Notes under the pieces: generated by a model
Database searches by the model: none
The model's input: only the letters and a program-made list of their open reading frames with translations
Told to the model about the DNA's origin: nothing
Source of the DNA: Vreelandella piezotolerans
Lineage (GTDB): Bacteria > Pseudomonadota > Gammaproteobacteria > Pseudomonadales > Halomonadaceae
Assembly: GCF_012427705.1 (NCBI RefSeq)
Contig: NZ_CP048602.1
Location: 372,001-436,000, forward strand
Direction: 5' to 3'
DNA length: 64,000 nt
Position numbers and translations under genes: made by a program
Shown: one piece after another, positions 47,261-58,003 of the stretch
Position numbering within the stretch: the stretch's first letter is position 1
Layout of the letters: the number at the start of each line of letters is the position of its first letter

Positions 47261-47656
47261 ATAAAGCGCTGAGTCCGACGCGCTCTACCACCAATGCTAG
47301 ACGTGACGCACACAAAAAAGCCGACTCTCGAAAGAATCGGCTTTTTCTATGTTGGGTAGCGGGGTCCGGATGTGAACCGATGACCTTCCTGGGGTGATAA
47401 AGCGCTGAGCCCGACGCGCTCTACCACCAATGCTAGGCGTGATGCACACAAAAAAGCCGACTCTCGAAAGAATCGGCTTTTTCTATGTTGGGTAGTGGGG
47501 TCCGGATGTGAACCGATGACCTTCCTGGGGTGATAAAGCGCTGAGCCCGACGCGCTCTACCACCAATGCTAGGCGTGATGCACACAAAAAAGCCGACTCT
47601 CGAAAGAATCGGCTTTTTCTATGTTTGGTAGCGGGGACCGGATTTGAACCGATGAC
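47261..47656 (-). repeat. Tandem 136-bp units: tRNA 3'-half remnant plus terminator
   Basis: Three copies start at 47261, 47397 and 47533. Read on the minus strand, each has a tRNA-like T arm and acceptor 3' strand (47353-47385, 47489-47521, 47625-47656) followed by a hairpin terminator (47314-47347, 47450-47483, 47586-47619). Each also has a D-arm-like TAGC...GGTAGAGC. The first two have a changed T loop (TTCACAT) and end ACCC, so they are decayed. The third keeps TTCAAAT and ends CCCCGCTACCA. None forms a complete tRNA. Confidence 0.85.
47625..47656 (-). other. Probable left attachment site (tRNA 3' end)
   Basis: 31 bases matching a tRNA 3' end with CCA, interrupted toward the 5' side at 47657, where the sequence becomes unrelated to the other two units. 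Tyrosine-recombinase elements usually leave such a fragment at one border. The partner copy should lie beyond the right edge of the window. Confidence 0.55.
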
Positions 47657-47676
47657 GGTTATGAGACTGATGATAT

Positions 47677-47697
47677 AAGGACATTTATTTTGTCCTT
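47677..47697. repeat. Perfect palindrome next to the recombinase
   Basis: AAGGACA and TGTCCTT flank a 7-base A/T spacer. Two 7-bp arms around a 7-bp centre is the geometry of a tyrosine-recombinase core site. A short hairpin without a T run is the other reading. Confidence 0.5.
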
Positions 47698-47774: not shown

Positions 47775-50700
47775 ATGTCACAAGAGGTCGTAGGAAATTG
47801 TCACAATGAGCAGCTTGAGGCAGTGACCGTCAGTCTCGGGAAGCGGTTTCGAAAGCTGGTTGCGTGGTCGAATGATGAGGACTTGCTGGATGTGCTGCAG
47901 GTTATTTATCACGCCCTTGGCTTGAGTCCCCGTAATGATGCTATCGCCAATCTAGTTCGAGAGTGCTCACACCCCGAGTCTATCGAGATTCTCGCTTCCT
48001 GGGCAGGTGATCCGCTTGTCGATGAGCTGCAACGGTTTGTCGATCGTTTTAATGCTGACCATCAAATCTCACGGGAATATCCTGTAGAGGCGCATGCTGG
48101 TGATGTGGAGCAGAATAAACGCCAGTTTCAGGAAGGTGGAGTCACAAACAAAACCTTCTTGATCACGATGACCACCAACCCCCAGGCTCAAGCAAGTAAC
48201 GACGCGCTCTTGTTTTGGCGTCGCCTGCTGCGTTTGTGGCTGGTCGTTCATGCGCTGCATCGTATTGCGCACCAAAAATGTATCGCGGACCGCCATATAA
48301 GCGACGCGGCACGATTTATTACGATCGGGCCCTACGATGAAAAGTGGCAGATGATAGATGCGCTCTTGCGGCGGTGTCGAAGCTTTGTCGGGGAGCACGA
48401 GCCGACGTTGGAACGTGTTAACGATGCGCTCATTTTTGCTATCAATGAAATACGCCTGGATTACTCTAATAACCGAGCGGTTAATCGTTTCTTTAATTCC
48501 GTTACCCGTATTGCCCGTGGCGAAGTAGCGCCTATAAATAATGAAGCGACGGCACCGTTATTGCGTATTGAGCGGTTTGTGCCGCCTGCCGTCTCGGTGG
48601 TCCATCATGTTAATGAAGAGGGAGAAGACACCCAGTACCAGTTTTATGCCTATCGACACGAGGCAAGGGCGGATCTCGATCCAGAAGAAGATGAAGGCAC
48701 CTATGTTGCCACGGTGGATCCTTCAGAGAGTAATGCTGAGCAGCAGTTGGCGAGCCGTAGCTATTTTGTGCAAACGGCGGAAGCGTCGCATTTTTTGCCG
48801 TGGAGTTGGGAAAAGCTGTTACCGCCTGAACAAGAGGTTCTGCTGGACTGGATAGACCAGGGTTTATTCTCTCTTGATTCCGTAGACCAATTGGGTGCCG
48901 TAATGGTGTGGCTGTCAGTTCGGTTTTCGCGCACCCTTTATTTCGCCGAGCAATTTCGAATCGATGATACCCCGGGCGACGAATGGACATTGGCACAAGA
49001 TTTTTCCTCTATCGCTCGAACATCTCCTCGGCGGGCGAATGCGTGGCAGGGCAGAGGGGAATCGCTGGTATATATCTATCCGCTAGAAGAGGTACTCTCC
49101 ATTGAGTTGCCCACCCAAGTAGCCAGTGTTCTCCAGCAGAGGGCGAGTCAACAAAATACCTCGCCGATTATGCTACGCAACCTATGGGAAGGTGCTATCC
49201 CGCTGGAGCGCTGGTTTTACCAGCAGGCACAATCACATTTCCCACGCGTTACGAGTGCTAAGCTGGCACATGTTTGGGGTCAGGTTGTGTTTGATCGCAC
49301 TCAAGATCCGCATTTGGCGCGACTGCTAAGTGCCCACCCCAATGCAGGGTTGCCTGGGGCTTCCAGCTATGCAACATGGGATATCACTGCGATCGAAAAA
49401 GGGTTGTCTCTTGGCCTGGCCGCGTCTGCCCCTTTCCCGCCAAGCGTCAATCTTATCGGTAGCCGACTTTCGCCAATAACGTCGTTATTGCGTGACGAGA
49501 TAGCGCAAGCGAGGAGCGTGGTTGAAAAGAGCGCCGAAGCAGGGCTCGTCCACTACCATAATGCGCTGGCTCAATACTGTGTAATGGGGCTCTACGCTGC
49601 AACAGGCGGTCGGTTTCTTCGGGACCCGTTCGAATCCCTGCAGCATTTTAATCTCTCAGCACGCTGTTTGTACCTGAACGACAAAATGGACCAGGGACGT
49701 CGAAGCAGCCGTGTCGTGCCATTACCCCATCAGGCCGTCGAACTCGTGCATTGCTATATTTCGCACTTGCAGTCGCTAGCGATAGCCTTGGATGATGTGA
49801 ACCCGATGCTGGCCGAGGCAGTATACAAAGTGTTGGCAGGCGACGGCCTATCGACCCTTCCGTTTTTCTTCTTGCTCGATGAGAGCTTGTCATGGCATTC
49901 CACGTCGACCATGGATTTACCCAGTGTTCCCTTATTTCAATGGCCACTGCCCAGCAATGTGTTTCGTCATCGCTATGCCCAACAATTACGTTACTTAGGC
50001 GTGCCCGCAGAGGTAGTAGATGGTTGGATGGGACATGCGGAGCGAAGCGTGGCTAGCTATGGGGATTTCTCGCCGCGCTGCTGGCAACATGATGCAGACG
50101 CCTATGCTCGCGAGGTCGATACTGCTTTTGATGGCCTGGGCTTCTTACCGCCAACTGCGCCGACGATATTACCTGGGGTCTCTGTTCAATGCCTGAGGGG
50201 TGTTGGTGAAGCTCAAAAAGCACCAGTGCCGCGGCCCTTCGGGCAACGCCTGCGAGAAAAAGAGCGCCGCCGCACTATCAAGCGAGAACACGAGGGGGCC
50301 AGTAAGGATATTGACGTTTACTTGGGGGGTGGACCCCTGTCAGATATCCAACAAGCAGACGTTGATACGTTGGTCCAGCGGATGTTGCATCGAAATAATT
50401 CCGTCATCCACCCGTATGCGTCACTTCGTTTATCGGTTTTGTTACGGCGCTTGGAAGAGGAAGGCAGCCGATATCAATATTCGATAAACAAACGCGTCGC
50501 TGAAGCCGCTGCAGAGAAATCACTCATCACGGCGCTAGCCGTCAAGGCCGTTTCGTTACTACCGAGCTTTGAGCAGTGGGCAGAGAATCTTCGCAAAACA
50601 GGACTTAAAGCACAGTTTTCCAAACTCGGCGCGCTGAGCGTCGGCGCCCTGTTGCTATGCTTGGAAAAACGCATCAGCTACCCACGCATGCTGCTTGATG

Positions 50701-53174
50701 TGGCTCAAGGGCGTAACTATCGACTCATCCAGCATCAACGGGACTATTTGCTCGAGTATAGTGAAAGCCTGGACATGGCGGACTACCGTGCCCCCGCTCA
50801 GCGTCACCGGGTTAGCTATAAAACCGCGTCTTTGTTGGCGGCCGGTCAAGGCCTTCAAAAAGAGGTCGACCTCAGCCAAGTCAAGCTCCCAGGTAATATC
50901 ACCTCTCCCCCAGAAGCACTGAAAGCACACCAGCCAACGTTACCGGAGGCAAGTGTTCAAACGGTATTGACCACGCTGAGTGAGCTGATGTGCCAAGCTA
51001 ATTTACTGACGCTGCCCGGTTTGGTCTCAGGTGCGTTAGCAGGCCGCGTCCCTTCTACAAGCCTGCCGCTAGTCGATGAGCTGCGCATTCGTGATGGGAA
51101 TAGGTTTGCGTTCCCTACCCCCCATGATACCCAACACGATATGGAGGTGAATTTATCGACCGGTGTGACGCCTAGTTGGCGGGATATGAGTAAAGTCGAG
51201 CAGCAAAAAAGTGCGAATCGTCTTTATACAGAAGTACTGGAGGTTCTAAAAGGATATACAAAGCGCCAATCGCGGCGGACGGCCTCACAGCTCGATAAGC
51301 TAACCAACCGATACGAAGGAGAGGTGAGCGCCTGCGTAATGCTGTTAGTTCGGTGGATAAGCTTTCTAATGCGGCGAGGCAAAGTCGGGAAGCAAAACGA
51401 CTATGCGCAAAGCTCGTTAACGCGCTATTTCTCGTCATTAAAGACGGCATTTGCCGAGTTCGGCTACCAGACAAACCTAGTCGATCACGACGAAGAGGAG
51501 GTGACAGCGCTGTATGCCAAGATGTTGACATTCGTCGAGTTGGCGTCGCAAGACGTGACATATTTTAGCCACCGACTGCGCGATTTTCATGCCTGGGCTG
51601 AAACGTTAGGGGTGGCGAGCCCTGACTGGCAGGAGCTATCAGTCTCGGACGATCGGCGCAGCGTGCGCCCAGGCATGCTAGTACAAAGTGAGTATCTTGC
51701 GTGCCAGTCAGTGCTACTTGCGAAATGGAGACACCACAGCGATGAAACGTTCCTGCTACTGGGATTTGTGCTGCTGCTCACCTTTCGGTTTGGTCTGCGG
51801 GCGCAGGAGGCCATTGGCTTGCAACGCAGTGATTGGTGTGAGCATCAAAACACCCGCTGGGTCCTGATTCGCGACAATGCCCAGCGTAAGCTGAAAAGCG
51901 ATTCGAGCCGACGTGCCGTGCCTCTGCTTTTTGCGCTGGATGGTAGCGAAGAAAATATCATCGAACAGGTGTTCAGTCGTTTTACCTCATTGGCAGGTAA
52001 TGACGTAAAACGGCCAATCTTGTGTGAGCTTTATGAAAGCCAGGCACGGCTCATCTCTTGGTCGCGGCAGGTCAGTCCGGTGTTAATACAGTTGCTTCGC
52101 CAGGGGACATCAAGTGACGGGCTAACACTGCACCATTGTCGCCACGCCTTTTATAACACCTTGGCACCGGCTCTATTCGGTATTAACACAGCGCTAACCC
52201 AATCGATATGTAAGGGTGTCGATGCGCGAGCGATACGCCAACAAGTATTAGGAGCTAATCACACGGTATCGCGTCGCAGCGGCATGGCGTCGGCGAGGCT
52301 GATGGGGCATCGGCACCCGCGTATTGGTTTGTTGAATTACAGTCATTGTTTATTCGATTGGGCGGATCAACTAACGCCCGTTTGTCATCAACGGGCAAGG
52401 AAAATTGCCGGTGTTCTACACACGGGCAACCTGCGACGACTTAAAGCCCCGGCGCTTGAGCAGGTCGATATCACCGTGCCCTATGCTGAGTTGACCTTCA
52501 CGGCCTTATGGAAAATGCTGCGGTTTGTCGGGTTGGGCATGAGCTATGAGCGTGCTGGTCAGCGGGTCAATATCAGCCCAGAAAACATTGAGACGATCGC
52601 AAAAGGCGTTCGGCAAGCTGAGTCACATATGCGGTTCAAGGTGAAAAACAATAATGATAGGTGGGTCAATGGCGAAACCTATCCATATATCTTCTTGAGA
52701 AGCCTGGGCGAAAAAGCATGGCGTCGCTTCTTTGAGCATATTGAGAAGATAAAGGAAAGTGATTTGGCCGTTAAAGGCGAGTGTATGGGCCTCAATGAAT
52801 TGCCTTTTTTAATTAGCAAAAATCGCCAGCTATTAATGAGCCACGAGACTCACCTGCGGTTCTTTATGAAGGTATTGGCACTTTTTGGGGTGCCAAAGCA
52901 AAATGTACAAGTGGTGTCAAGGAATATGCCAGACGAGATGGTTTATGCATTGAAAGATAATGGTTTGCATGCAGACGACGAAATCGATGGCTTCCAGCTC
53001 GACCCGTTTCCCATCGTGGTAGAGGGTGTCTTGGACCGTCGTCAACAATACGCCGCCCTTCGCCTCAAAAGGTCGCCGGTTGGCACTGTGCGCAATAGCC
53101 ATGAACTCGCCGTTGCAGTCTTGGCATGTGGCCTGTTCGGTGGACTATCTTCTCCTGCGCTGGGAGATTGTTAG
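47775..53174 (+). CDS. Giant protein with two tyrosine-recombinase domains
   Basis: 1799 aa, against 300-450 for ordinary tyrosine recombinases. Domain 1 has Arg613 (ATGGRFLRD), SNVFRHRYAQQL (Arg731, His732; the first His is Asn728), WMGH (His754) and Tyr762. Domain 2 has Arg1342 (FGLRAQEAIGL), Lys in QRKLKSDSSRRAVPL, LHHCRH (His1453, Arg1456, His1457), LMGH (His1512) and Tyr1522. A ~50-residue stretch separates the HxxR and GH boxes of domain 2. The N-terminal ~550 residues and the 250-residue tail are unrecognised. GAGGG precedes ATG 47775. It is probably the island's integrase. Confidence 0.85.
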   Translation: MSQEVVGNCHNEQLEAVTVSLGKRFRKLVAWSNDEDLLDVLQVIYHALGLSPRNDAIANLVRECSHPESIEILASWAGDPLVDELQRFVDRFNADHQISREYPVEAHAGDVEQNKRQFQEGGVTNKTFLITMTTNPQAQASNDALLFWRRLLRLWLVVHALHRIAHQKCIADRHISDAARFITIGPYDEKWQMIDALLRRCRSFVGEHEPTLERVNDALIFAINEIRLDYSNNRAVNRFFNSVTRIARGEVAPINNEATAPLLRIERFVPPAVSVVHHVNEEGEDTQYQFYAYRHEARADLDPEEDEGTYVATVDPSESNAEQQLASRSYFVQTAEASHFLPWSWEKLLPPEQEVLLDWIDQGLFSLDSVDQLGAVMVWLSVRFSRTLYFAEQFRIDDTPGDEWTLAQDFSSIARTSPRRANAWQGRGESLVYIYPLEEVLSIELPTQVASVLQQRASQQNTSPIMLRNLWEGAIPLERWFYQQAQSHFPRVTSAKLAHVWGQVVFDRTQDPHLARLLSAHPNAGLPGASSYATWDITAIEKGLSLGLAASAPFPPSVNLIGSRLSPITSLLRDEIAQARSVVEKSAEAGLVHYHNALAQYCVMGLYAATGGRFLRDPFESLQHFNLSARCLYLNDKMDQGRRSSRVVPLPHQAVELVHCYISHLQSLAIALDDVNPMLAEAVYKVLAGDGLSTLPFFFLLDESLSWHSTSTMDLPSVPLFQWPLPSNVFRHRYAQQLRYLGVPAEVVDGWMGHAERSVASYGDFSPRCWQHDADAYAREVDTAFDGLGFLPPTAPTILPGVSVQCLRGVGEAQKAPVPRPFGQRLREKERRRTIKREHEGASKDIDVYLGGGPLSDIQQADVDTLVQRMLHRNNSVIHPYASLRLSVLLRRLEEEGSRYQYSINKRVAEAAAEKSLITALAVKAVSLLPSFEQWAENLRKTGLKAQFSKLGALSVGALLLCLEKRISYPRMLLDVAQGRNYRLIQHQRDYLLEYSESLDMADYRAPAQRHRVSYKTASLLAAGQGLQKEVDLSQVKLPGNITSPPEALKAHQPTLPEASVQTVLTTLSELMCQANLLTLPGLVSGALAGRVPSTSLPLVDELRIRDGNRFAFPTPHDTQHDMEVNLSTGVTPSWRDMSKVEQQKSANRLYTEVLEVLKGYTKRQSRRTASQLDKLTNRYEGEVSACVMLLVRWISFLMRRGKVGKQNDYAQSSLTRYFSSLKTAFAEFGYQTNLVDHDEEEVTALYAKMLTFVELASQDVTYFSHRLRDFHAWAETLGVASPDWQELSVSDDRRSVRPGMLVQSEYLACQSVLLAKWRHHSDETFLLLGFVLLLTFRFGLRAQEAIGLQRSDWCEHQNTRWVLIRDNAQRKLKSDSSRRAVPLLFALDGSEENIIEQVFSRFTSLAGNDVKRPILCELYESQARLISWSRQVSPVLIQLLRQGTSSDGLTLHHCRHAFYNTLAPALFGINTALTQSICKGVDARAIRQQVLGANHTVSRRSGMASARLMGHRHPRIGLLNYSHCLFDWADQLTPVCHQRARKIAGVLHTGNLRRLKAPALEQVDITVPYAELTFTALWKMLRFVGLGMSYERAGQRVNISPENIETIAKGVRQAESHMRFKVKNNNDRWVNGETYPYIFLRSLGEKAWRRFFEHIEKIKESDLAVKGECMGLNELPFLISKNRQLLMSHETHLRFFMKVLALFGVPKQNVQVVSRNMPDEMVYALKDNGLHADDEIDGFQLDPFPIVVEGVLDRRQQYAALRLKRSPVGTVRNSHELAVAVLACGLFGGLSSPALGDC

Positions 53175-53972: not shown

Positions 53973-54806
53973 TTGGCGATGATCGAGCGAGCGGATCCCC
54001 ACATCAGCATTTCGCGCCAATGTGAGCTGCTCAAACTGAGCCGCTCATCAGTGTATTACGTCCCTCGTGAGCCACGTCAGGAGGATCTGGAACTAATGTA
54101 TCTGATTGACCAGCAGCACCTGGAAACGCCGTACTATGGCGCCCGCAAGATGCGGGTTCACTTGCAGCACCAAGGCTACCGGGTCAACCGGAAGCGGGTG
54201 CAACGGCTGATGCGCACCATGGGTATCCAGGCCGTGTATTCGCGCCCCAGAACCAGTATTCCCGGCGATGGGCACAAGATTTACCCGTACTTGCTCAAGG
54301 GGCTGGCGATCGATCGTCCCAACCAGGCGTGGGCGACTGATATTTCGTATATTCCGCTGGCTCGGGGCTTCATGTACCTGGTCGCCATCATCGACTGGTA
54401 CAGCCGCAAAGTGCTGTCCTGGCGGGTCTCCAACACCATGGACACGAACTTCTGCATTGATGCCCTGGAGGAGGCTCTACAGCGCCACGGGACGCCGGAG
54501 ATCTTCAATACCGATCAAGGCGCCCAATTCACTAGCGACGCTTTTACAGCGGTACTGAAGGAGCACAGCATCCGGATCAGCATGGACGGCAAGGGCTGCT
54601 ACCATGACAACATCTTTGTGGAACGGCTCTGGCGCAGCGTGAAGCACGAGTGCGTCTACCTCACCGCCTTCGAGGACGGACAGCACCTGAAACAGGCGCT
54701 CAACCGCTACTTCCGGCATTACAATCAGAACCGATACCACCAAACCCTTGAGTACCAAACACCCGATGAGGTGTACTACGGACACCCCCTATCCTTGGCA
54801 GCCTGA
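53973..54806 (+). CDS. IS3-family transposase OrfB (DDE)
   Basis: 277 aa as a separate ORF (TTG start), but the frame is open upstream to the TTTTTTG slip site and reads ARSVSRQRRLAMIERADP, so OrfAB is likely made by -1 frameshift. The DDE residues are in WATDISYIPL, FNTDQGAQFTS and FVERLWRSVKHE. Intact, so possibly active. Confidence 0.93.
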   Translation: MAMIERADPHISISRQCELLKLSRSSVYYVPREPRQEDLELMYLIDQQHLETPYYGARKMRVHLQHQGYRVNRKRVQRLMRTMGIQAVYSRPRTSIPGDGHKIYPYLLKGLAIDRPNQAWATDISYIPLARGFMYLVAIIDWYSRKVLSWRVSNTMDTNFCIDALEEALQRHGTPEIFNTDQGAQFTSDAFTAVLKEHSIRISMDGKGCYHDNIFVERLWRSVKHECVYLTAFEDGQHLKQALNRYFRHYNQNRYHQTLEYQTPDEVYYGHPLSLAA

Positions 54807-54978: not shown

Positions 54979-55314
54979 CTAGGTCAAGTCTTCCTCTGGT
55001 GCTGAAGGCCCGTTCGTCTTAACAGACGAGATCCCTGCATCCCTTGCACCCGCAGAGGAGTACATCTGACTTACCCCAATAATTTGGCCATTAGAGGCCT
55101 TGAGAGCAAAATAAGGGCTTCCATTAGTCGATGTCTTTCGATCGTAAAACCGGTCATCTGGACTATGCTGTCGAACCGATCCGACACCGTTCTGGGCACC
55201 AGTTTTGTTCTGATATCCCTCGCTTTGCAGAATGATTTCCCCGTTTCCCGCTTTAAGGCGGAAATAGTACTCTGCGCTGCGATCACTGCGGAAAATTTGG
55301 TACTTAGCTGACAT
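54979..55314 (-). CDS. YegP-type DUF1508 protein
   Basis: 111 aa with two tandem DUF1508 repeats (YYFRLKAGNGEIILQSEGYQ and YFALKASNGQIIGVSQMYSS). ATG 55314 has AAAGGAGG upstream. It begins one base after the stop of the 57-aa gene. DUF1508 proteins are widespread small proteins of unknown role; they recur on plasmids and islands. Confidence 0.88.
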   Translation of the reverse strand: MSAKYQIFRSDRSAEYYFRLKAGNGEIILQSEGYQNKTGAQNGVGSVRQHSPDDRFYDRKTSTNGSPYFALKASNGQIIGVSQMYSSAGARDAGISSVKTNGPSAPEEDLT

Positions 55315-55315
55315 A

Positions 55316-55489
55316 TCAACGAGCCTCCTTTCGAACGCCTTTAAACGGAAGATCATCGGATTTCACATCCATGAAACGTCCTGTCTCTGCATCACGCTTT
55401 ACCCATCTGCCAGAGCTCATCTGAGTTTGAGATCGTTGGCGCACTGCGCCTACTCGCTTATTGTCGCCATATGGACGATTGACTGCCAT
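55316..55489 (-). CDS. Small basic protein paired with YegP
   Basis: 57 aa, MAVNRPYGDNKRVGAVRQRS, ending FMDVKSDDLPFKGVRKEAR. It is strongly basic with no membrane segment. It has AGAGAGG upstream and is directly coupled to the DUF1508 gene. I recall similar small proteins in this position elsewhere, but no function. Confidence 0.75.
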   Translation of the reverse strand: MAVNRPYGDNKRVGAVRQRSQTQMSSGRWVKRDAETGRFMDVKSDDLPFKGVRKEAR

Positions 55490-55781
55490 GACTGTATACC
55501 TCTCTAAACCAGTCGTTTACAAGTTCGCCATGGAGCAGTAGAATTCTCGCCGGTCAAAGCTGCAATCTACTGCCAATGGCGGTGGAAGTGCGCTATCAAA
55601 CCCGATCAGCACATTGTTGTTCGGGTTTTTTAGTGCACGCCAATTATGGTAATCAAAATGATGCATACAGTCAATGCGACTATCATCATCAAAATGATTT
55701 GATGGCTGGCCTTGCGCATCCTATATTCAACCAAGTGGGAAAGCAGGCCGCTCGGCTTTACGTATATCGGGGAGAGAGGAT
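55490..55781. promoter_or_regulatory. Divergent intergenic region with two operator-like repeats
   Basis: Two copies of ATCAAAATGAT, itself an imperfect palindrome (ATCA-AAA-TGAT), lie at 55652-55662 and 55688-55698, 36 bp apart. They lie between the divergent small-protein/YegP and WYL genes. A terminator-like hairpin (ACCCGA/TCGGGT then TTTTT) is at 55599-55632. The WYL protein is the likely binder; this is inference. Confidence 0.5.
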
Positions 55782-56666
55782 ATGAGGAGGACGCCATTTG
55801 AAGGAGTCTCAGGTCAACAGCTGGAAAGGTTGGCTCACATCGAATTTCTGGTTTACTTTACTGGAAAGGTCACTCGGAAAGACATTATGTCCAGGTTTGG
55901 TGTGAGCTCGGCGGCAGCTACCCGCGACTTGGGCACCTACATCGATGAAGCGCCAGTTAACATAGTGTATGACCCAAGACAGAAGCATTACGTAGCGACC
56001 AACCAATTCCAGTGCTTACTGCCTCTCTCTGCAGAGAAGTGCCTCTCCACGCTAACAAGTGGTTTCGGTGACGTTATGGAGAGCCGTGAGGTTTTTCGCT
56101 GCGCTTACAGCATAGCCCTTGAAAAACCCGACCTAGATATTACTGCTACATTCTCACGGGCCATTTCGTTGTCTAGGCCAGTTGAAATCGAGTATGTTTC
56201 GACATCGAGTGGATCTTCAACCCGAATAATCTGCCCGCATTCGTTAATGAATAATGGGTTGAGATGGCACGTCCGTGCCTATGACAGGAAAAGAAAAAAA
56301 TTCTCGGATTTTGTGATTAATCGCGTGTTATCCATTGAGCTATTGTACCAAGAAATCTTTGAGAAAAATGAAAGCATTGATGAGGACGCTGAGTGGATGG
56401 AACAAGTCGAGTTAATCATCCAGCCTCATCCGCGGTTACCTAGGAATAAACAGAGAGCAGTAGAAGAAGAATTCAGAATGCAGGGTGGCGTCCTCTTAAA
56501 AGAGGTTAAAAAAGCCCAAGTAGGTTATCTTCTCAATAGTTGGAATGTTGACTCGACGGTTGATGCGGACCTGAAAGGCCATCACGTTTTACTGCACTTG
56601 AAGAATGCTGAAGATATCAAGAAAATGAATATTGAAAGTTTTCTATTGGCGCCAAGCCTGGACTAG
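55782..56666 (+). CDS. WYL-domain transcription regulator of BrxR/CapW type
   Basis: 294 aa. An N-terminal winged helix-turn-helix (LERLAHIEFLVYFTGKVTRK...SSAAATRDLGTY, ~15-65) is followed by a WYL domain (~125-205; VEIEYVSTSSG, ICPHSLMNNGLRWHVRAYD, FVINRV) and a C-terminal WCX-like segment. This architecture is that of BrxR/CapW repressors that control BREX, CBASS and other defence islands. GGGGAGAGAGG lies before ATG 55782. No recognised defence operon follows. Confidence 0.82.
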   Translation: MRRTPFEGVSGQQLERLAHIEFLVYFTGKVTRKDIMSRFGVSSAAATRDLGTYIDEAPVNIVYDPRQKHYVATNQFQCLLPLSAEKCLSTLTSGFGDVMESREVFRCAYSIALEKPDLDITATFSRAISLSRPVEIEYVSTSSGSSTRIICPHSLMNNGLRWHVRAYDRKRKKFSDFVINRVLSIELLYQEIFEKNESIDEDAEWMEQVELIIQPHPRLPRNKQRAVEEEFRMQGGVLLKEVKKAQVGYLLNSWNVDSTVDADLKGHHVLLHLKNAEDIKKMNIESFLLAPSLD

Positions 56667-57163: not shown

Positions 57164-58003
57164 TTATTGGATAAGTTTAAACCCTTCAGTATCCAATAAC
57201 GTTCTATCTATTTCCAGCGTTTTGAGCGTATACGATGATTTTTGACTCTTGGTCTCGGTTGTTTTTCTTGCTGTGAACCGAACAGGTAGGCGTTTAAAAG
57301 CTGCTTCGCTAATAGTCGAAAGCAGGTCGGGGTGGGCAACTTTGAATTTTCGGATGCCTCCGGTTTTTGTTGAATTTTCTTGTATTAATAATATGTATAT
57401 TTCATTCCGGCTATATGAATACCCATCGGCTAAACCAGCTCCGTCAGTTGTAGTCGACGTTGAAGTCTGTTTTTCAGGTTTAATAAACTCATTGTTGACG
57501 CATAGTAATGGATCGCTCTCTGGAGTGTCGAGAAGGCTAAATCCATCAGCGATTTTAGAGCTGCTCCATTTGGTTAAAAAGAGCTCTTGTCGTTCTTCTA
57601 ATTTCTGAGCTGTTTCCCTACCTATCCAAGATACGGCTTGCTGCTCTTGGAAAAGGTCCCCGTCGGGAAGCATCTTTTGAACAATATAAATAGCTAGTGA
57701 ACGTGCTTTTTGAATTATTTCTAATGCGATTTTTTTATCCAGTGTGGCTTCTAAATAGAAAACTATGCCTGCGTTTTTGGGCGTGTGCTCTTTTGTGAAT
57801 ATGACATAATCATGTTGAATGGATGTGTCATATTCTGTCCCGATTTCGTTGTTGATAGTTGAAGAAATGTAGCTGGCAAGCTTTTTTATAGCAGGGTCAT
57901 TGATTTTGTCTTCATCATATTCCATGTATTCGTCATACACGTTTTTAATGGCGGCAGAGTTGGCAGCAAGGATGAATATTTGATTGTCTTTTAGTGGTTT
58001 CAC
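57164..58003 (-). CDS. Hypothetical protein, AT-rich orphan
   Basis: 279 aa, MKPLKDNQIFILAANSAAIK. It is soluble and Lys/Glu/Thr-rich, with low GC compared with the rest of the window, which marks it as acquired. It has no recognised motif. It has a Ser/Thr linker (TSTSTTTDG) near residue 185 separating two predicted globular parts. It is the largest cargo gene near the WYL regulator and might be its partner, but nothing in the sequence shows this. Confidence 0.75.
   Translation of the reverse strand: MKPLKDNQIFILAANSAAIKNVYDEYMEYDEDKINDPAIKKLASYISSTINNEIGTEYDTSIQHDYVIFTKEHTPKNAGIVFYLEATLDKKIALEIIQKARSLAIYIVQKMLPDGDLFQEQQAVSWIGRETAQKLEERQELFLTKWSSSKIADGFSLLDTPESDPLLCVNNEFIKPEKQTSTSTTTDGAGLADGYSYSRNEIYILLIQENSTKTGGIRKFKVAHPDLLSTISEAAFKRLPVRFTARKTTETKSQKSSYTLKTLEIDRTLLDTEGFKLIQ

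What the first reader, a model, noticed from the sequence alone, without database searches (positions are those of the whole stretch)
47775..53174. 1799-aa protein with two complete tyrosine-recombinase catalytic domains
Two sets of R...HxxR...GH...Y motifs are seen about 730 residues apart in one unbroken frame. Domain 2 has all catalytic residues; domain 1 lacks only the first His. Ordinary integrases have one domain and a quarter of this length. A fused pair could bind both partners of a synapse, or one copy could be regulatory. A large unknown N-terminal region precedes them.
Basis: partly seen in the sequence, partly recalled or inferred. Interest (0 to 1): 0.85.

Follow-up and report, generated by a model that had tools for sequence, protein, structure and literature searches.

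The report
Three-domain recombinase of tRNA-fMet islands
A single very large bacterial protein contains what look like three DNA cut-and-rejoin (tyrosine recombinase) units in one chain; it sits at one end of genomic islands inserted in the initiator-tRNA gene, while an ordinary integrase sits at the other end, so it appears to be a one-chain version of multi-recombinase mobile-element machinery.

Summary
The 1799-aa frame is real and belongs to a family: 19 further homologues of 1790-1848 aa. Both reported domains are supported by conserved residues and predicted fold. The model of the "unknown" N-terminal half shows a third recombinase/topoisomerase-IB-like fold (~339-529), so the chain probably carries three: A (degenerate), B (His->Asn; Tyr in 25 of 28) and C (intact in 28 of 28). 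In related genomes A+B and C are two adjacent genes. In most relatives with a readable junction (23 of 27) the gene starts within 200 bp of the left end of an island inserted in the initiator tRNA-Met gene. Here the island is ~97 kb, bounded by 31-bp direct repeats; a relative has the empty site. The right end carries an ordinary arm-domain integrase next to the intact tRNA. So this is not a lone integrase. My best reading is a one-chain left-end recombinase that works with the right-end integrase, comparable to SE, GInt and Tsy elements but fused. No activity was tested. Which enzyme integrates the island is unresolved: the left terminus tracks the ordinary integrase as well as it tracks this protein.

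The parts
47626..47656 (-). attL: displaced 3' end (31 nt) of the initiator tRNA-Met gene, exact direct repeat of the 3' end of the intact gene at G000:C1:516949-517025 (outside the window)
   Evidence: intact tRNA called by ARAGORN (L189)
47657..47673 (+). conserved left terminus of the island, GGTTATGAGACTGATGA
   Evidence: 11 of 82 genomes of the genus at <=1 mismatch; its first nine bases found at the left junction of 27 of 36 loci
47677..47697 (.). palindrome AAGGACA-N7-TGTCCTT between terminus and gene; possible recombinase or regulator binding site (inference)
   Evidence: similar GGACA..TGTCC at the same place in several relatives
47775..53174 (+). three-domain tyrosine-recombinase-fold protein, 1799 aa
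48789..49361 (+). domain A, residues ~339-529: degenerate recombinase/topoisomerase-IB-like fold (R386, TxxK493-496, H521; Y532 just after)
49452..50141 (+). domain B, residues ~560-789 (R613, K637, N728xxR731, H754, Y762)
51327..51650 (+). core-binding-like segment before domain C, residues ~1185-1292
   Evidence: several alignments, e.g. to IntI, lambda Int and Tn1549 Int, start at model residue ~340
51654..52361 (+). domain C, residues ~1294-1529, complete catalytic set (R1342, K1374, H1453xxR1456, H1512, Y1522)
57164..58003 (-). partner gene (family f2, ~290 aa, unknown function); in relatives mostly directly after and convergent with the recombinase gene
   Evidence: 24 of 36 loci; no Pfam or NCBIfam match above cut-off
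53973..54806 (+). transposase gene (IS3-type by my recognition, no family call) of an insertion that lies between recombinase and partner gene here; three aligned relatives have only a short gap at this spot

Best explanation
The protein is a single-chain assembly of three tyrosine-recombinase-like folds. It serves as the left-end recombinase of genomic islands inserted in the initiator tRNA-Met gene. Shown: family, conserved catalytic residues, position, island, direct repeats, empty site, and the ordinary integrase at the opposite end; predicted: the folds. Inferred: it binds the left terminus just upstream of its own gene; domain C cleaves; domain B cleaves or assists; domain A and the N-terminal region bind DNA or hold the synapse; [quoted passage not shown] This would be as in SE, GInt and Tsy elements, which need more than one recombinase protein. 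Fusion would fix the ratio of subunits that such systems encode in separate genes.
For: Full-length family. Three folds. Two-gene relatives match A+B (hhalign 99.7%) and C (99.85%). N and C halves evolve together (Mantel r 0.96, n=28). Catalytic residues and purifying selection. Left junction within 200 bp of the gene in 23 of the 27 loci where it was found (36 examined), at exactly 118 bp in 13. In 82 genus genomes: terminus 11, fused gene 13, both 10 (Fisher p 1.4e-9). An integrase like the right-end one in 18 of 18 fused-gene genomes searched at E<=1e-30, on the same contig and facing the fused gene in 8. Several recombinases acting together is published for SE (PMC10214605: abstract, sections 3 part 1 and 13, and passages read), GInt (PMC5385486: passages read) and Tsy (PMC10293859: abstract and passages read; both YRec and TnsF catalysis required).
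Against: The right-end integrase is of a kind that usually suffices alone (established knowledge). The left terminus tracks that integrase as well as it tracks the fused gene: all 11 terminus genomes have a >=77% identical integrase (16 of 82 do), and G398 has terminus and integrase but no fused gene. The 18-of-18 count has no matched baseline: at the stricter E<=1e-100, 26 of 82 genus genomes have such an integrase. Integrase and fused protein do not evolve in step (91% against 39% identity for L021/L172; r 0.63, n=9). No clear inverted copy of the terminus was found downstream of the gene. No activity data.
Confidence: 0.5

Rival explanations
1. The ordinary right-end integrase alone moves the island. 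The fused protein is a conserved passenger at the left end with another job, for example stabilising the island, resolving multimers, blocking or recruiting further islands in the tRNA, or defence.
For: 466-aa integrase with arm, SAM-like and catalytic domains; an intact tRNA-Met lies within 1.5 kb (mostly ~0.6-0.9 kb) in 26 of 40 integrase loci examined. G398 has the left terminus and the integrase without the fused gene. In L172, L168, L155, L152 and G042 the fused gene lies 0.7-27 kb from the terminus.
Against: The constant spacing of 118 bp from the junction in distant genera, selection on the catalytic residues, and the co-occurrence with such an integrase suggest coupling.
Confidence: 0.33
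2. The fused gene is the recombinase of its own SE-like element, nested next to the left end of the tRNA islands, with a right end of its own inside the island.
For: Same kind of content as SE/GInt (three recombinase folds); recombinase and f2 are the only block shared by most loci; three copies without a recognisable tRNA remnant at the left (L140, L151, L166).
Against: No clear inverted copy of the terminus downstream of the gene: 4 of 36 loci beat the best of 20 shuffles, at unrelated distances, where about 2 are expected. The terminus occurs without the gene in G398.
Confidence: 0.12
3. Relic: a once active fused recombinase now decaying at islands.
For: 8 of 36 loci lack a full-length frame, several of them because the contig begins or ends in the gene; in two frames in G184, in pieces on two contigs in G129.
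Against: 28 of 36 loci with a full-length frame, conserved residues, dN/dS 0.06-0.22 in 7 of 8 pairs.
Confidence: 0.05

Closest known systems
Two-gene relatives (unnamed) in the same taxonomic family, e.g. L025, L028 (169-187 aa + 794-875 aa + 1026-1137 aa)
   Same: Homologous A+B and C; L025 and L039 sit in the same tRNA-Met, L025 next to ybbN
   Different: Separate genes; no Tyr at the aligned domain-B position in 8 of 8; an extra small gene in front; a different left terminus in the two cases read
Strand-biased circularizing integrative elements (SE; IntA, Tfp, IntB, Srap)
   Same: Three recombinase-fold units, one of them degenerate; large recombinase; gammaproteobacterial; site-specific
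   Different: Four separate genes in one operon in SE (545, 614, 671, 161 aa in pAQU1; I assigned them by order and by the neighbouring gene); no sequence match found, but the test had no power (the ordinary-integrase control also failed)
GInt islands (GinA, GinB, GinC, GinD)
   Same: Three recombinase-type proteins, one lacking a catalytic residue; large islands with cargo
   Different: Separate genes at one end; the word tRNA does not occur in the main text; here the units are fused and a further integrase sits at the other end
Tsy elements (YRec + TnsF)
   Same: Two recombinase-family proteins with different roles, both catalytic activities required (PMC10293859)
   Different: comM target, separate proteins, plus HTH and GIY-YIG genes
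Gamma-Mobile-Trio (GmtY, GmtZ, GmtX)
   Same: Island with cargo; an ordinary recombinase (GmtY, 441 aa) followed in L173 by a 908-aa ORF with a recombinase-like motif (I take it for GmtZ)
   Different: No GMT family match to this protein; separate genes; the GMT paper itself was not held
Ordinary tRNA-targeting island integrases (PF12167 + PF00589)
   Same: Direct repeats at a tRNA 3' end
   Different: One catalytic domain, ~450 aa; here that role seems to belong to the right-end gene

Membership tests
Tyrosine recombinase superfamily | Catalytic fold | tested here: met
Tyrosine recombinase superfamily | R-K-H-R-H/W-Y catalytic residues | tested here: met
   Domain C 28 of 28; domain B with His->Asn and Tyr 25 of 28; domain A not: TxxK in place of HxxR, H521 23 of 28
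SE | Separate intA-tfp-intB-srap operon at the left end | tested here: not met
   One recombinase gene at the left end; f2 convergent
SE | Homology to Tfp/IntB/Srap | tested here: inconclusive
   No match, but the positive control failed too
SE | Imperfect inverted repeats at both ends | tested here: inconclusive
   No clear inverted copy of the left terminus within 9 kb downstream of the gene; the island's right end is the tRNA itself
SE | Strand-biased circle with a 6-bp spacer, no empty site | not testable with these tools
   Needs DNA from cells
GInt | ginABCD operon | tested here: not met
   Layout differs; GinABCD sequences were not compared
GMT | Match to GMT family models | tested here: not met
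   No NCBIfam model at E<=10 for the protein, none named GMT at E<=1 for the right-end integrase; NF040693 (GmtY) has 441 positions
Tn554 / RIT / Tsy | TnpABC, RitABC, or YRec+TnsF genes and their known targets | tested here: inconclusive
   Gene layout and target differ from the descriptions read; sequences not compared
tRNA-integrated genomic island | Direct repeats, intact tRNA at one end, empty site in a relative | tested here: met
   31-bp repeat; G160 empty site with both flanks collinear

The most novel reading that the evidence does not exclude
A single-chain three-recombinase protein at one end and an ordinary integrase at the other form a four-domain heteromeric machine that moves large islands through tRNA-fMet, with catalysis by domain C, assisted by B, and A as a built-in architectural subunit. 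It would be a natural one-chain recombinase trio with its unfused two-gene stage still present in related bacteria (and, by conjecture, SE/GInt as the fully separate stage).
Probability: 0.3. Interest if true: 0.8.

Novelty: new variant of a known kind. Interest (0 to 1): 0.64.

Why it matters
Elements that use several tyrosine recombinases (SE, GInt, Tn554, Tsy, GMT) can carry resistance and defence genes, but the role and ratio of their subunits are unclear, partly because complementation from separate copies failed for intA and intB (PMC10214605, discussion). A natural fusion with fixed order and ratio is a tractable object for structure and biochemistry, and a series of fused and two-gene relatives lets each domain be tested. 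It also names the recombinase genes of a tRNA-fMet island hotspot found in several genera of mostly marine bacteria.

Tried and rejected
Phage origin: no match in 50,697 phage records and no confirmed relative in viral contigs. Plasmid origin: no full-length match; 3 of 72,556 records match short parts. GMT membership: rejected on family models. The ORF after gmtY in L173 against the two half-profiles: no match, with a single-sequence template only. Sequence links among domains A, B and C: none, so their kinship rests on fold and motifs; A against its two-gene counterpart is weak (73.7%, E 3e-5), B and C against theirs strong (99.7%, 99.8%). Comparison with SE proteins: uninformative because the control failed. 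Search for an inverted terminus marking an own right end: 36 loci, 20 letter shuffles each; 4 loci (L138, L146, L156, L160; 3-4 mismatches in 17) beat all their shuffles, at 0.4, 1.4, 4.7 and 2.7 kb, so no consistent site. Solved-structure sequence search with profiles: nothing below E 0.28. f2 against Srap, GmtX and the small two-gene protein: no match. A fold that is not listed or 112 is not excluded; residues 1-330, 800-1180 and 1540-1799 were barely tested. Library searches on fused recombinases gave nothing on point except PMC10293859.

Full report
OBSERVATION. The frame 47775-53174 (+) encodes 1799 aa without interruption. It occurs once in its genome (one contig, 3.95 Mb; window = G000:C1:372001-436000). 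A protein search over 5.8 billion sequences returned 20 proteins at E<=0.001, the window's own included, all 1790-1848 aa long, the others 35-81% identical to it and aligned over 97-100% of it (only the 7,999 candidates sharing most words were scored, and only proteins of 0.55-1.75 times its length). The 1.8-kilo-residue architecture is therefore a family, not an accident. A scan of one genome per species gave 35 named loci, in Vreelandella/Halomonas, Marinobacter, Marinospirillum, Denitrificimonas, Thalassolituus, Parathalassolituus, Zhongshania, Spongiibacter, Neomelitea, a Motiliproteus MAG and other MAGs. Names given by sources, where any, are mostly 'hypothetical protein', with 'Site-specific integrase' and 'DNA breaking-rejoining enzyme' once each.

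CATALYTIC RESIDUES. Of the 36 loci (35 plus the window) 28 have a full-length frame; the other 8 are truncated, split or cut by contig ends (L145, L157, L161, L162, L167, L169, L170, L171) and were left out of the counts. Among the 28: domain C (R1342, K1374, H1453, R1456, G1511, H1512, Y1522) 28 of 28; domain B R613, K637, N728, R731, G753, H754 28 of 28 and Y762 25 of 28, with Trp in L152, L160 and L166. In the separate set of 20 proteins R613 is Cys in one. PF00589 matches 10 of 28 C-halves and 5 of 28 N-halves at E<=0.01, the window's own halves not among them.

UNFUSED RELATIVES. In a sample of 201 genomes of the same family, 26 have a match, and many of the weaker ones are two adjacent genes instead of one. 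I took eight such loci: a 169-187-aa gene, a 794-875-aa gene and a 1026-1137-aa gene (starts not refined). The middle protein aligns with residues ~326-792 of the fused one (hhalign 99.7%, E 1.5e-26), i.e. A and B; the last aligns with the C region (99.85%, E 8e-31). Domain C residues are conserved in 8 of 8. The aligned domain-B Tyr position is Phe, Trp or Ser in 8 of 8; three of them (L028, L037, L038) have a Tyr three residues further on. So domain B seems to have lost its nucleophile in the two-gene form and in three fused loci, while C never has: C is the likely essential nuclease (inference). The two halves of the fused protein have diverged in step (Mantel r 0.96, 28 sequences). dN/dS is 0.06-0.22 in all six segments of 7 of 8 pairs and lowest in C in 5 of 8; the near-identical pair L143/L144 gives unreliable ratios up to 0.77.

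POSITION. The gene begins 118 bp after a junction at which a 31-nt 3' fragment of an initiator-tRNA-Met gene (47626-47656) is followed by GGTTATGAGACTGATGA (47657-47673). The intact tRNA lies at G000:C1:516949-517025 and repeats the same 31 nt, so the island spans about 97.3 kb. In G160 the gene ybbN (my name for the thioredoxin-domain gene), an intact tRNA-Met and the right-hand flank are contiguous: an empty site. Over all 36 loci the GGTTATGAG junction was found in 27, of which 24 carry a recognisable tRNA-Met remnant (not L140, L151, L166). It lies within 200 bp of the gene in 23 of 27 and at exactly 118 bp in 13; in L152, L155, L168 and L172 it lies 0.7-6.8 kb away. In the remaining nine it was not found; several of those contigs begin in the gene, and in G042 (same contig as L149, by length) the junction is ~27 kb away. 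Two-gene islands can sit in the same tRNA but continue GGTTATGAGCCGGATTG (two cases read).

THE OTHER END. In G000 the right end carries a 466-aa integrase with arm-binding (PF12167), SAM-like and catalytic (PF00589, E 1e-22) domains, and a 330-aa HD/TraI_2 protein. The integrase has homologues at the right ends of the islands in G154, G184 and G042, the HD protein in G154 and G184. I examined 40 of the 60 integrase loci fetched: an intact tRNA-Met lies within 1.5 kb in 26; in two more the neighbour is the left terminus of the next island, i.e. tandem islands; in 12 neither was seen (one with too little sequence, one with a tRNA-Arg); the HD protein is next to it in 25. All 18 fused-gene genomes searched have such an integrase at E<=1e-30 (best identity 49-91%), in 8 on the same contig facing the fused gene (contigs matched by length), 6 of these 8 with a tRNA-Met beside it. 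In 82 genomes of the genus: terminus (<=1 mismatch) 11; fused gene (E<=1e-50) 13; integrase at >=77% identity 16 (a partial 74% match in G387 not counted; 26 at E<=1e-100); terminus and fused 10; terminus and integrase 11; fused and integrase 12. The terminus is thus tied to the integrase at least as tightly as to the fused protein, and G398 has terminus and integrase without it. This is the main reason for my moderate confidence in the mechanism.

PARTNER AND CARGO. A ~290-aa protein of unknown function (f2) is present in 24 of 36 loci, mostly the next gene and convergent; in the window it is 57164-58003 (-), separated by a transposase insertion, a DUF1508 gene and a WYL regulator. Of ten proteins from the right part of the island, eight match defence-library models at E<=1e-5 (among them HmaC/DUF499, Orf5/HEC-06, AbiU, PbeA/PLD-type helicase, NERD helicase). 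Such models include general helicases (the RecB-like protein matches too), so complete systems are not claimed.

MECHANISM. Best reading: the fused protein binds the left terminus and the tRNA site and, with the right-end integrase, forms the recombining complex; domain C cuts, B cuts or assists, A and the N-terminal region hold DNA or subunits. [quoted passage not shown] I read the abstract, sections 3 (part 1) and 13 and passages of PMC10214605, passages of PMC5385486, the abstract and passages of PMC10293859, and passages of PMC8138268. The rival that the integrase acts alone is nearly as likely.

NOVELTY. I found no description of two or three tyrosine-recombinase domains in one bacterial chain in the held open-access library (listings); subscription papers and preprint servers were not searchable, and the GMT paper was not held. 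The kind of machinery is known; the one-chain form and the division over both island ends appear new.

Noticed in passing
window 47261-47668: Three 136-bp tandem units, each a tRNA-like fragment plus a hairpin terminator; the last is cut by the island. G047 has a similar array (L025 from 1526). They look like scars of earlier tRNA duplications or insertions.
   Followed up: partly
left junctions of L138-L172: The tRNA remnant before GGTTATGAG is truncated at different points (13 to 36 nt kept) while GGTTATGAG itself stays intact in different genera; no explanation.
   Followed up: partly
G398:C1:321386-334178: A ~13-kb stretch with the left terminus and the right-end integrase but no fused gene: a natural test case for the passenger rival.
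   Followed up: no
G000:C1:501699-511188: Three large genes inside the island; the middle one is UvrD-like with a PDDEXK domain (RecB-like) and the set looks like recBCD (the RecC and RecD labels are from memory).
   Followed up: no
G000:C1:456510-457766 and 472528-473784: Two 418-aa genes with the same start sequence, probably one insertion sequence in two copies.
   Followed up: no
plasmid records: 223 of 227 matching plasmid records are Acinetobacter and encode distant relatives of the two-gene C protein, in the listed rows often named site-specific integrase; their neighbours were not examined.
   Followed up: no
L169 9883-16241: A ~6.4-kb remnant in Spongiibacter pelagi: left junction, fused gene ending at residue 1010, two genes I take for an IS21-type pair, then an intact tRNA-Met.
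   Followed up: partly
window 54979-56666: A DUF1508 gene and a WYL regulator lie between the recombinase and f2 in four Vreelandella/Halomonas loci, this one included.
   Followed up: no
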